From contig NZ_JACSPW010000005.1 of NCBI RefSeq assembly GCF_014836935.1, positions 62,001 to 126,000 of the forward strand: a stretch of 64,000 bases of DNA, in the 5' to 3' direction. The translations under genes and the position numbers were made by a program. The stretch's first letter is position 1. Every line of letters starts with the position of its first letter. Below the pieces are notes generated by a model. The model saw nothing but the letters and a program-made list of their open reading frames with translations, did no database searches and was not told the DNA's origin. Of the stretch, positions 19,208 through 51,706 are shown piece by piece. The DNA is from Solibacillus merdavium (GTDB lineage: Bacteria > Bacillota > Bacilli > Bacillales_A > Planococcaceae).

Positions 19208-19215
19208 TACCCGTT

Positions 19216-19320
19216 CTTATCTGCCAAGGTCATTGCCTTGCTGGAAGTAGCACCTTTCTAGTTGTACTAGAGGTTGCTGAAGCATCTACGGGCACAGTTC
19301 CCTCCGCTTCTCTTGATAAG
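19216..19320 (-). ncRNA. SAM-I (S-box) riboswitch
   Basis: The minus strand reads CTTATCAAGAGAAGCGGAGG, then GATGCTTCAGCAACCTCTAG, and closes with CTTGGCAGATAAG: the P1 stem, the purine-rich kink-turn strand and the conserved CAGCAACC of the S-box family. With the terminator downstream it should stop transcription of metA when S-adenosylmethionine is plentiful. Confidence 0.95.
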
Positions 19321-19385
19321 ACTATTAAATTGACACTAGTGTAACACGGTAGTGTAAGTTTTGCAATAATTCAAAAAATATATAT

Positions 19386-44280: not shown

Positions 44281-44313
44281 AAAAAAGGCATCCTAATTAA
44301 AGGATACCTCTTT
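44281..44313 (-). terminator. Intrinsic terminator of the cold-shock gene
   Basis: AGG-ATCCT and AGGAT-CCT arms around TTAATT, then T7 on the minus strand. Confidence 0.8.
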
Positions 44314-44334
44314 TGTATGGTTACATCATTAAAA

Positions 44335-44535
44335 TTAAAGTTTTACGATGTTTGTAGCTTGTGGGCCACGTTGACCGTCTTCAATACCGAATTCAACTTT
44401 TTGACCTTCGTCTAAAGATTTGAATCCGTCGCCTTGGATTGCTGAGAAGTGAGCGAATACGTCGTTTCCGCCTTCAACTTCGATAAATCCAAAACCTTTT
44501 TCTGCGTTAAACCATTTTACTGTACCTTGTGTCAT
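44335..44535 (-). CDS. csp: Cold-shock protein (CspB/CspD family)
   Basis: A 66-residue single cold-shock domain: [20 protein letters not shown] with RNP1 KGFGFI, then RNP2 DVFAHFSAI, and the end [11 protein letters not shown]. It binds single-stranded RNA and DNA, melts RNA structure and can act as a transcription antiterminator. AATGGAGGTC precedes the ATG. The leader of about 140 bases contains a long hairpin with T-tract (44580-44650) between promoter and gene. Confidence 0.95.
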
Positions 44536-44579
44536 TTAAATGACCTCCATTATTCGTATTAATAAGATGACAATTTCTT

Positions 44580-44650
44580 TAAAAGAAAAAAATTCACATA
44601 TTACAAAAAGTACCAAACAAAATCCAAATACTTTTTGTAATAGGTGAATT
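44580..44650 (-). promoter_or_regulatory. Leader terminator (attenuator) of csp
   Basis: Minus-strand arms 44650-44629 and 44612-44591 pair at 21 of 22 positions around a 16-base loop and are followed by a T-rich run. It lies inside the transcribed leader, so transcription should stop before the gene unless the hairpin is prevented. Confidence 0.75.
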
Positions 44651-44873: not shown

Positions 44874-46148
44874 TTAGTACGTCAATGATTTTTCTTCAAT
44901 ATCCCCTGTCTTCATATCCCTCAATCCATACTTCCCTTTAGCTATTTCATCTTCCCCCAGCACAATAATCTTTGATACATTTTCACGATTAGCCTTTTCC
45001 ATTGCCTTACGTACCTTTTTGCCACCGAGTTCTACTTCAACCCGATTACCTTCTTTGCGTAAGCTTGATGCAAGTTGTAGTGCCTGCTTTTCTGTACCAA
45101 TGGGAATAATATAAATATCGATCTCTGTAGGCTTTCCTTCAATTTTACCAGCTAATTCAAGCGCTGTATAAATAACATCAAGGCCGAATGAAATACCAAC
45201 CGTTGCAAATTCCTCATCTGTGCCAATCAGTCCACCAATCGCATTATCATAGCGACCGCCACTGCCAATACTTGATTTAATTACACCGTCTGCTAAGAAG
45301 ATTTCATAAATAGTTCCTGTATAAATTTCCAGACCTCGTGCTAAAAACGGATTGAAAATACAGGTTTGGGCAATATTAAGCGCGTTTAAATAATCCATTA
45401 ATTCATGTACTTCAGCTACACCTTGCTTTATGAAGTTGTTTTCGTCTTGAAATGTTTCAAAATACGAAAGTGTCGGTGCTGCGTCTAAAAAGCTTTCTAT
45501 ATTTTTTAGCGACTTTTGACTTATCCCCAACTCCGTTAATTCCTTCGCTAATGTCATACGGTCGATTTTTTCCATCTTGTCTAAAACTAAAATAACCCGA
45601 TTCATTTTTTGTTCATCCACTTCAAGCACTTGCAGTATCCCGTACAAAAGCTTGCGGTTATTATATTGAATAAAGATGTTTACGTCTAATTTTTCAAAAG
45701 CATTGACTGCCATCATCATCAGTTCAGCTTCCGCAGCTTGTGACTTTACACCGACGATATCGACATCACATTGTGTAAACTCACGGAATCGTCCAGCTTT
45801 AATCGGACCATCACGAAACACTTTCCCGATTTCATAACGCTTAAATGGCATCGCAAGCCCTGGATTCATCGCTACCACTTTTGCGAATGGAATGGTTAAA
45901 TCATAACGAAGTGCCAATTCACGTTCGCCACGATCTGTTAATGTGTACATTTCCTGCAAAATTTCTGCCCCACCTCCATATTTGGATGCCATTAAATCGG
46001 TATAATTAATCATCGGAGTTTCTATTGGTTTACAGCCATATAAAATAAAAGTATCCTCCAACGTACGGCGAATTTTACGTCGTACTACCTCTTGCTCTGG
46101 TAAAAAATCCTGTGTACCTCGTACATTTTGATAATCCATTTTTTTCAT
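44874..46148 (-). CDS. hisS: Histidyl-tRNA synthetase
   Basis: A 424-residue class II synthetase that charges tRNA-His. It has motif 1 around GCKPIETPMINYTDLM, motif 2 FKRYEIGKVFRDGPIKAGRFREFTQCD (the FRxE-like loop), the His-binding peptides GLEIYTGTIYEIF and GSGGRYDNAIGG, motif 3 GISFGLDVI, and a C-terminal anticodon-binding domain (KTGDIEEKSL at the end). It stands alone, not beside aspS as hisS usually does in Bacillus, so it may be a second, regulated copy. AAAGGAGG precedes the ATG. The leader encodes a His-rich peptide and a terminator. Confidence 0.93.
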   Translation of the reverse strand: MKKMDYQNVRGTQDFLPEQEVVRRKIRRTLEDTFILYGCKPIETPMINYTDLMASKYGGGAEILQEMYTLTDRGERELALRYDLTIPFAKVVAMNPGLAMPFKRYEIGKVFRDGPIKAGRFREFTQCDVDIVGVKSQAAEAELMMMAVNAFEKLDVNIFIQYNNRKLLYGILQVLEVDEQKMNRVILVLDKMEKIDRMTLAKELTELGISQKSLKNIESFLDAAPTLSYFETFQDENNFIKQGVAEVHELMDYLNALNIAQTCIFNPFLARGLEIYTGTIYEIFLADGVIKSSIGSGGRYDNAIGGLIGTDEEFATVGISFGLDVIYTALELAGKIEGKPTEIDIYIIPIGTEKQALQLASSLRKEGNRVEVELGGKKVRKAMEKANRENVSKIIVLGEDEIAKGKYGLRDMKTGDIEEKSLTY

Positions 46149-46174: not shown

Positions 46175-46225
46175 TAAAAAAAATCGTCTATATAAAGCTC
46201 CTAAAACGGCTTTATGTATACGATT
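46175..46225 (-). terminator. Leader terminator of hisS
   Basis: Minus-strand AATCGTATACATAAAGC (46225-46209) pairs with GCTTTATATAGACGATT (46198-46182) at 15 of 17 positions, with a 10-base loop, followed by T8. It lies 26 bases before the hisS start, inside the transcript. Confidence 0.85.
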
Positions 46226-46235
46226 CCACGAAAAA

Positions 46236-46282
46236 TAGTCTTCCTATTCAATATTAATAAATTAATAAAGATAGCAAGACTA
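46236..46282 (-). promoter_or_regulatory. Upstream hairpin of the hisS leader
   Basis: TAGTCTTGCTAT (46282-46271), which includes the stop codon of the leader peptide, pairs with ATAGGAAGACTA (46247-46236) at 11 of 12 positions, followed by T5. A candidate pause or anti-antiterminator hairpin. Confidence 0.6.
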
Positions 46283-46333
46283 CTTTGTATGATGATGTGT
46301 TGTAGAAAATATGGATGCCTTCAATTTCAGCAT
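46280..46333 (-). CDS. hisS leader peptide with three consecutive His codons
   Basis: A 17-residue ORF, MLKLKASIFSTTHHHTK, with GGAGGA six bases before its ATG (an in-frame ATG six bases upstream is too close to that site). The three His codons lie at 46297-46289, three codons before the stop. It sits 23 bases after the predicted transcription start and is followed by two hairpins and a terminator before hisS. The design is that of a classical attenuator leader peptide: ribosomes would stall at the His codons when charged tRNA-His is scarce. Confidence 0.8.
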   Translation of the reverse strand: MLKLKASIFSTTHHHTK

Positions 46334-46362
46334 AAACATTCCTCCTTCTAAAGTTGTCCATT

Positions 46363-46391
46363 ACTATACAGGAACTTATTTCCATTTGCAA
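46363..46391 (-). promoter_or_regulatory. Sigma-A promoter of hisS
   Basis: Minus strand TTGCAA (46391-46386), a 17-base spacer, TATAGT (46368-46363). Start predicted near 46356. Confidence 0.75.
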
Positions 46392-51380: not shown

Positions 51381-51401
51381 AAGTGCATATGTACGCACTT
51401 A

Positions 51402-51480
51402 TTGCTCCCTACGCCAGTATTAACTGTCAGGTTCTAAGGGTCAGGTTTTAACCTTCTCAACACAATTGTGTCCCCCCGCA
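51402..51480 (-). ncRNA. TPP riboswitch, proximal copy
   Basis: The minus strand reads GGGGGGACACAATTGTGTTG, GAGAAGG, CCTGACCCTTAGAACCTGA, then TAATACTGGCGTAGGGA: the conserved CUGAGA-like, ACCUGA and GCGUAGGGA elements of the thiamin pyrophosphate aptamer. It acts on tenA-tenI-thiOSGF through its own terminator. Confidence 0.93.
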
Positions 51481-51494
51481 ATTAAAAAATTTGC

Positions 51495-51528: not shown

Positions 51529-51553
51529 ACGTACGATTATTAGCTTGTACATT

Positions 51554-51632
51554 TTGCTCCCTACGCCCGTGTTAACGGAACAGGTTCTAAGGGTCAGGTT
51601 TTACCTTCTCAACACTTACGTGTCCCCCTGCA
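51554..51632 (-). ncRNA. TPP riboswitch, distal copy
   Basis: A second complete aptamer (AGGGGGACACGTAAGTGTTG, CCTGACCCTTAGAACCTG, TTAACACGGGCGTAGGGA) 75 bases upstream of the first, with its own terminator. Tandem TPP riboswitches before tenA are known in Bacillus anthracis. Confidence 0.92.
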
Positions 51633-51706
51633 AATTCATTTAATTACTACTAGTCTACTGATAATTCTGAATAAATGCAATGGTATTTTAAATTATTTCC
51701 TACTAC

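What the first reader, a model, noticed from the sequence alone, without database searches (positions are those of the whole stretch)
46175..46391. hisS carries a classical attenuator: a leader peptide with three His codons and a terminator, in a Firmicute
Seen directly on the minus strand: a sigma-A promoter (46391-46363); 23 bases on, a good ribosome binding site and the ORF MLKLKASIFSTTHHHTK, with the His codons at 46297-46289; then a 12-bp hairpin that includes the stop codon (46282-46236); then a 17-bp hairpin followed by T8 (46225-46175), 26 bases before hisS. Known background: Bacillales aminoacyl-tRNA synthetase genes are usually T-box controlled, and no T-box sequence is visible here. 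Inference: ribosome stalling at His codons when charged tRNA-His is low should prevent the terminator and raise hisS, using translation of a peptide instead of tRNA binding. The isolated hisS may be a second, starvation-induced copy.
Basis: partly seen in the sequence, partly recalled or inferred. Interest (0 to 1): 0.88.

Follow-up and report, generated by a model that had tools for sequence, protein, structure and literature searches.

The report
Histidine leader peptide before spare hisS
A short histidine-rich peptide gene and a conserved transcription terminator sit in front of this bacterium's second histidyl-tRNA synthetase gene, a predicted histidine-shortage switch of a kind already proposed in 2010, and relatives show similar peptides wired to different RNA switches.

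Summary
This hisS is a second copy; the housekeeping hisS-aspS carries a T-box. The leader precedes 79 of 80 orthologues examined (73 with HHH or longer), and both hairpins covary. Naville and Gautheret (2010) already predicted a His leader peptide before the Bacillus hisS paralogue, so the kind is known. 'Classical' is not supported: no dedicated antiterminator is detectable in the window type. With a ribosome at His codon 1 the terminator's 5' arm is freer than in shuffles; hiding hairpin 1 brings it only to about the shuffle level. The spacer between the hairpins is instead conserved in sequence (mostly YTNTTT) and placed like a NusG-dependent pause, 11 nt behind a hairpin. Two other Bacilli genera have His-run leader peptides before same-family hisS with different RNA; in one, folding suggests an antiterminator with opposite ribosome logic, though 30% of shuffles shift likewise; in the other it is equivocal. 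Induction by His-tRNA shortage is likely but untested; how the terminator is escaped is open. New member of a known kind.

The parts
46363..46391 (-). sigma-A-type promoter-like site, TTGCAA-17-TATAGT
   Evidence: 9 of 12, not above the shuffle rate alone; conserved -10
46341..46347 (-). Shine-Dalgarno AAGGAGG, 7 nt before the second in-frame ATG
   Evidence: sequence
46280..46333 (-). leader peptide ORF MLKLKASIFSTTHHHTK, stop TAG
   Evidence: a leader ORF in 79 of 80 orthologous loci
46289..46297 (-). three His codons, CAT CAT CAT
46236..46282 (-). hairpin 1; its 5' foot is the leader's stop codon; conserved mismatch inside the stem
   Evidence: covariation; stop codon and partner triplet
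46228..46238 (-). conserved spacer CTATTTTTCGT, NusG-pause-like (YTNTTT at -11 to -6 of a putative pause at 46228)
   Evidence: motif rule from PMC12288461 passages
46176..46226 (-). intrinsic terminator: hairpin plus T8
44874..46148 (-). hisS2, second histidyl-tRNA synthetase (NF009085/PRK12420)

Best explanation
A transcription attenuator that reads the supply of charged tRNA-His through translation of a short peptide and controls a second, non-housekeeping hisS. Shown by sequence: leader ORF, three His codons, two covarying hairpins, conserved pause-like spacer, terminator, no T-box, second gene copy. Inferred: without histidine stress most transcripts end at 46183-46176; when charged tRNA-His is short a ribosome halts on the CAT codons with its front edge at or just inside the foot of hairpin 1, RNA polymerase waits at about 46228 with hairpin 1 behind it, and the halted ribosome lowers termination so that hisS2 rises. 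The step that defeats the terminator in this RNA type is unresolved: either the ribosome opens hairpin 1 and a weak alternative fold holds the terminator's 5' arm, or the pause or a factor does it.
For: Leader before 79 of 80 named orthologues, 73 with a run of 3 or more His; present at all 26 over-cut-off loci found in 151 genomes of the family, 20 with HHH and 6 with HxH. Covariation in both hairpins. Gene is copy two; copy one has a T-box. His-run leaders before same-family hisS also in two other genera with different RNA. In one genome where the gene has decayed, the first hairpin's stem is broken too. Published prediction of the same arrangement.
Against: No dedicated antiterminator in the window type: with a ribosome at His1 the terminator 5' arm is sequestered only 0.11 (22 distinct leaders) and 0.18 (61), below shuffles at 0.44 and 0.39; with the ribosome at the stop codon 0.44 and 0.26 against shuffles at 0.39 and 0.35. 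At His3 only 0.26 and 0.29; the window itself moves from 0.17 to 0.38 at most. A ribosome on His1 hardly reaches hairpin 1. B. subtilis polymerase is reported to outrun ribosomes (PMC10953045 passage). Exact TTNTTT in only 4 of 50 spacers. No expression data.
Confidence: 0.72

Rival explanations
1. Fully classical trp/his-type switch: a ribosome on the His codons hides the 5' arm of hairpin 1, the freed 3' part pairs with the terminator's 5' arm and the terminator is blocked.
For: Hiding the arm (ribosome at the stop codon) raises sequestration of the terminator 5' arm by more than 0.2 in 18 of 22 distinct window-group leaders (8% of shuffles) and in 13 of 61 others (6% of shuffles). In the window group the rise begins at His3.
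Against: The hidden state only reaches the shuffle level (0.44 against 0.39; 0.26 against 0.35), so the shift may reflect no more than hairpin 1 being strong. The lower 3' arm pairs with the terminator arm worse than its shuffles (91% and 79% of shuffles at least as good); no conserved helix; weak in the window itself.
Confidence: 0.3
2. Inverted logic, as folding suggests for genus f22 g40: a ribosome on the His codons leaves hairpin 1 intact, and it is the ribosome at the stop codon that opens it; intact hairpin 1 means readthrough.
For: The stop codon lies in or within a few bases of the first hairpin's foot in the leader groups seen. In f22 g40, 10 of 13 distinct leaders sequester the terminator arm more with a ribosome at His1 (0.75) than at the stop (0.35), 0 of 13 the other way; one search places the change at the stop codon.
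Against: 30% of f22 g40 shuffles shift likewise, and shuffles reach 0.59 at His1. The window type has no third segment to form an antiterminator, and an intact hairpin 1 leaves its terminator arm more exposed than shuffles. In the f3 g21 set the prediction is equivocal: 8 of 26 for, 5 of 26 against.
Confidence: 0.18
3. The pause is the switch: hairpin 1 plus the T-rich spacer holds RNA polymerase before the terminator, and a higher-order fold (such as an RNA triplex) or a protein, not simple base pairing, decides termination.
For: Spacer conserved although mostly unpaired; motif and spacing fit the NusG pause rule. RNA triplexes before hisZ in the B. cereus group are mentioned in PMC4833913 (passage).
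Against: The exact TTNTTT is rare (4 of 50; YTNTTT in 39 of 50); no pause data; no factor known.
Confidence: 0.2
4. The terminator is constitutive, and the leader acts on translation or RNA stability of hisS2.
For: No dedicated antiterminator found. The scan did show the U-tract complementary to the A-rich hisS start region, which could be trivial.
Against: Terminator pairs covary, and a terminator was recognised in all 88 aligned leaders.
Confidence: 0.1

Closest known systems
His leader peptide before hisS* and hisZ in bacilli (Naville and Gautheret 2010, PMC2965389; outline, passages and section 10 seen)
   Same: His-codon leader ORF and attenuator before the Bacillus hisS paralogue, while hisS proper has a T-box
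   Different: That paper clusters sequences and predicts; what I read gives no antiterminator, no pause and no test. In the window's own genome the leader is found only at hisS2, not at hisZ.
RNA attenuators of his operons in the B. cereus group, Peptostreptococcaceae and relatives, Erysipelotrichales (Ashniev et al. 2022, PMC9413887; passages seen)
   Same: leader with three to five His codons in a row, attenuator and terminator hairpins
   Different: controls biosynthesis; the authors report alternative antiterminators (in a supplement I could not open); 'hisS' and 'histidyl-tRNA synthetase' do not occur in the main text
Enterobacterial his and trp attenuators (RF00514 for his; mechanism from recall and PMC10953045 passage)
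   Same: tandem regulatory codons, terminator
   Different: well-defined alternative helices there; none detectable here; no Rfam match over cut-off
B. subtilis tlrB (PMC6851288, passages) and bmrBCD (PMC4191407, abstract and outline)
   Same: ribosome-dependent transcription attenuation in Bacillus; tlrB uses a NusG-dependent pause to wait for the ribosome
   Different: antibiotic-related signals; in tlrB the stalled ribosome itself prevents the terminator hairpin
T-box (RF00230)
   Same: senses tRNA charging for aminoacyl-tRNA synthetase genes; found before hisS1 of this genome
   Different: binds tRNA directly; absent here

Membership tests
His leader peptide of bacilli hisS*/hisZ (2010) | His-run ORF in the 5' UTR of the hisS paralogue with an attenuator, and a T-box on hisS proper | tested here: met
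His leader peptide of bacilli hisS*/hisZ (2010) | sequence similarity to the published leaders | not tested
leader-peptide (ribosome-mediated) transcription attenuator, any switch | short ORF with ribosome binding site and tandem codons of the relevant amino acid, conserved | tested here: met
leader-peptide (ribosome-mediated) transcription attenuator, any switch | intrinsic terminator between leader and gene, conserved with covariation | tested here: met
leader-peptide (ribosome-mediated) transcription attenuator, any switch | readthrough rises on amino acid starvation and depends on leader translation | not testable with these tools
   needs experiment
classical trp/his-type attenuator | dedicated antiterminator, exclusive with both hairpins, formed when the ribosome stalls | tested here: not met
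   window type; only a weak shift of the right sign (18 of 22 and 13 of 61 distinct leaders) that reaches the shuffle level
T-box | match to RF00230 | tested here: not met
NusG-dependent pause | TTNTTT at -11 to -6 and RNA hairpin 11-12 nt upstream of the 3' end | tested here: inconclusive
   YTNTTT in 39 of 50, exact TTNTTT in 4 of 50; spacing fits; rule

The most novel reading that the evidence does not exclude
In a bacterial group where polymerase is said to outrun ribosomes, hisS2 is run by a translation-coupled attenuator that needs no base-paired antiterminator: a hairpin holding the leader's stop codon fits exactly between a ribosome halted on the His codons and a polymerase held at a NusG-type pause, and this geometry itself sets termination. 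His-run peptides have kept their place before same-family hisS genes while the RNA switch around them was replaced by different designs, at least one with opposite ribosome logic.
Probability: 0.2. Interest if true: 0.75.

Novelty: new member of a known kind. Interest (0 to 1): 0.45.

Why it matters
A review describes transcription and translation as possibly functionally uncoupled in B. subtilis and perhaps in all Firmicutes (PMC10953045 passage), which should disfavour leader-peptide attenuators. A leader kept in dozens of Bacilli, with a pause-like element where a waiting polymerase would be needed, makes that question directly testable in a reporter. It also suggests two ways of sensing the same tRNA in one genome: a T-box on hisS1 and a translated peptide on hisS2.

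Tried and rejected
Antiterminator in the window type: RNAalifold of whole and 5'-trimmed leaders, averaged pair probabilities with the ribosome's footprint removed, conserved-helix scans for all and per group including 5' UTR and hisS start, segment duplex energies against shuffles, footprint scans, with shuffles: no dedicated helix. In one search the best of twenty segment pairs beat only about three quarters of shuffles (25% and 28% at least as good). A local hairpin UUUx-UCAU-yAAA between the hairpins looked like covariation by eye, but the tables show too many mismatches. Pairing of hairpin 1's GG/GA with the terminator's CC/UC: at the varying position 28 G-C and 10 A-U, but 5 G-U and 7 A-C of 50, and each column has its own partner. 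A second mini-ORF starting in the spacer: the start codon is often AUU or AUA, rejected. Leader at hisZ in the own genome: none found. Class-wide covariance search found few leaders because only 8 candidates per genome were scored; not used for counts. Of its 12 weak hits L143-L154 (28-35 bits) seven were looked at and looked like unrelated hairpins; the other five were not looked at; all were set aside.

Dropped rows: one search dropped L096 for length, and L084, L105, L109 had no near leader; one search removed rows identical after trimming (103 to 88); one search thinned 88 to 50 for the model; one of 61 leaders missed the spacer pattern; three leaders missed the pattern and were printed apart. 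In one search four f3 g21 leaders were framed wrongly; redid that set (32 of 34 loci recognised, 26 distinct; one of the 34, L181, is from f19 g53).

Full report
What is there. On the minus strand the window holds, in order, a promoter-like site (46391-46363), an SD (46347-46341), the 17-residue ORF MLKLKASIFSTTHHHTK (46333-46280), a hairpin whose 5' foot is the stop codon (46282-46236), an 11-base T-rich spacer (46238-46228, overlapping the hairpin's 3' foot), a terminator hairpin with T8 (46226-46176) and, after a short gap, a 424-residue histidyl-tRNA synthetase (44874-46148). The leader folds far better than its shuffles (z -3.18). No Rfam family reaches its gathering score there; a search to E 5 gave four chance-level matches, none a T-box. 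The promoter match alone is not above chance, but its -10 is conserved in the group alignment.

The gene. The synthetase belongs to NF009085 (607 bits against a cut-off of 540). Its best solved relatives are 6nhi (E 2.6e-63) and 3net (2.6e-49); chains named cytoplasmic histidine-tRNA ligase (4g84, E 1.2e-45; human, by recall) score above 1kmm (E 2.6e-30; E. coli, by recall). It is a second copy: the genome has another hisS at C8:41538-42755, 30% identical, followed by aspS, with a T-box at C8:41234-41466 (111.8 bits, cut-off 93; I did not check that T-box's specifier codon). Copy two is not universal: over the cut-off in 26 of 151 genomes of the family, among them 14 of the 16 genomes of the window's genus in that draw, and in 32 of 398 of the class.

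Conservation. Of 324 related stretches in named genomes the best 80 were returned. 79 of 80 have the leader: 73 with a run of three or more His, 5 with a run of two, 1 (Exiguobacterium) with HVHQH. The exception, L105, is a second copy in Oceanobacillus sp. J11TS1, about 13 kb from L100, which has the leader. In four loci (L084, L096, L109, L117) the leader lies farther upstream. The 26 over-cut-off loci of the family (own genome included) all carry it, 20 with HHH and 6 with HLH or HQH; some are the same species as in the 80. His codons in 77 of the 80 leaders are CAT 225, CAC 12, not clearly beyond the AT-rich bias (27 to 4 in five window genes). In 50 diverse leaders 10 of 17 consensus pairs have sequences changed on both sides that still pair. 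The stop codon takes part in many: in the 61-leader group TAG faces CTA in 47 and TAA faces TTA in 6, with 8 exceptions or unread; in the 27-leader window group TAG-CTA 14, TAG-CTT 6, and TAA with CTT or CTA 7, where the stop lies just before the stem. An exact hairpin-core pattern occurs once in the own genome, before hisS2. In 261 genomes of the order (all of one family) it occurs in 45; by my count of the table the reversed control pattern matches in 19, and several matches do not resemble the leader and were not looked at. In G486 a recognisable leader precedes a hisS2 full of stops, and there the lower stem of the hairpin is broken: leader and gene seem to decay together, in this one case.

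Is it classical? The defining element of a trp/his attenuator is an antiterminator that competes with both hairpins. In the window type none appears. Conserved-helix scans give hairpin 1, the terminator, a 6-pair match of the upper stem to the terminator arm in the window group, an imperfect match of the upper stem to the terminator's 3' arm in the other, and pairings with the U-tract. Removing the bases a stalled ribosome would cover gives no consensus antiterminator. The lower 3' arm of hairpin 1 pairs with the terminator 5' arm worse than shuffles do. With His codon 1 in the A site the terminator 5' arm is tied up upstream with mean probability 0.11 (22 distinct window-group leaders) and 0.18 (61 others), against 0.44 and 0.39 in shuffles; with the ribosome at the stop codon 0.44 and 0.26, against 0.39 and 0.35. 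So hiding hairpin 1 shifts 18 of 22 and 13 of 61 leaders by more than 0.2 in the classical direction (8% and 6% of shuffles; 0 and 2 leaders shift the other way), but only up to the shuffle level, which a strong first hairpin alone could cause. Sliding the footprint forward, the window group is at 0.26 at His3 and 0.44-0.45 beyond it, the other group between 0.18 and 0.33 throughout, and the window itself rises from 0.17 to 0.29 at the stop and 0.38 six bases on. A ribosome on His1 (front edge about 46285, using 15-16 nt from the P site as quoted in the tlrB paper) hardly touches hairpin 1.

The spacer. What is conserved between the hairpins is sequence, not pairing: CTATTT 33 of 50, TTATTT 4, YTNTTT 39 in all, mostly followed by nTCAT (TCGT in the window). 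A review gives the B. subtilis NusG pause rule as TTNTTT at -11 to -6 and a hairpin 11-12 nt upstream of the RNA end (PMC12288461, passages). Here the motif lies 11 to 6 nt before 46228, usually with C for T at its first position, a base that in hairpin 1 faces the stop codon; the stem below which it lies ends 11 nt upstream; and 46228 is just before the terminator arm. I infer a pause that holds polymerase for the ribosome, as reported for tlrB (PMC6851288, passages). This is a fit to a rule, not a measurement.

Other designs. In f22 g40 HHH is in all 18 first-fetched loci and in the two fetched later. In f3 g21 I looked at 33 loci of those 62 genomes: 31 were recognised by a KQR-stop end, 20 with HHH or HHHH and 11 with Tyr in place of some His; L181 of f19 g53 has QLHHIKQR. 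The RNA is different by eye. In f22 g40 the terminator arm is predicted to be held upstream when the ribosome is on the His codons (0.75) and less so at the stop codon (0.35): 10 of 13 distinct leaders shift by more than 0.2, 0 the other way; but shuffles give 0.59 and 0.50 and 30% shift likewise. If real, a ribosome on His leaves the first hairpin whole there, the opposite of the trp logic. In the f3 g21 set (26 distinct, one from f19 g53) the result is equivocal: 8 for, 5 against; shuffles 19% and 6%. Gln before the residue preceding the His run is frequent: Q at -2 in 50 of 61 of the larger group, QL in 30 of 32 of the leaders, but only 7 of 27 of the window group.

What is known. Naville and Gautheret (2010, PMC2965389; outline, passages and section 10) predicted a His leader peptide before hisS* and hisZ in bacilli and noted the T-box on hisS. 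Ashniev et al. (2022, PMC9413887; passages) predicted attenuators on his operons of the B. cereus group and others, with antiterminators, and do not name hisS in the main text. A 2016 paper mentions RNA triplexes before hisZ in the B. cereus group (PMC4833913, passage). My searches for tests of the hisS leader listed these and others that I did not open (for example PMC3896937, PMC4342826, PMC1262725); the library lacks most subscription journals, so I claim no more than that. Therefore the finding is a member of a kind already in print, with structural features (no detectable antiterminator, stop codon inside the hairpin, pause-like spacer, different designs in relatives) that I did not see described in what I read.

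Verdict. Observation right; regulation by histidyl-tRNA supply likely; 'classical' mechanism not supported; novelty moderate.

Noticed in passing
window 51389-51487 and 51541-51639 (-): Two TPP riboswitch aptamers in tandem, on the strand of the thi-like genes below them.
   Followed up: no
window 44281-44612 (-): cspA-type thermoregulator match just downstream of hisS2.
   Followed up: no
window 19214-19322 (-): SAM riboswitch match.
   Followed up: no
L174-L176, L178, L218-L222, L227, L228: In genus f3 g21, 11 of 31 recognised hisS2 leaders have Tyr codons in place of some His codons (HYYH, HHYY, YYH), all NAU or NAC codons; whether these sense Tyr, or something the two tRNAs share, is unknown.
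   Followed up: no
L141 1501-1629: Relic: recognisable His leader with a broken first hairpin before a hisS2 full of stop codons in G486.
   Followed up: partly
L100 and L105: Two hisS2 copies about 13 kb apart in Oceanobacillus sp. J11TS1; only one keeps the leader.
   Followed up: partly
G000 (whole genome): 20 T-box matches, 16 over the cut-off, so the genome is not short of T-boxes.
   Followed up: no
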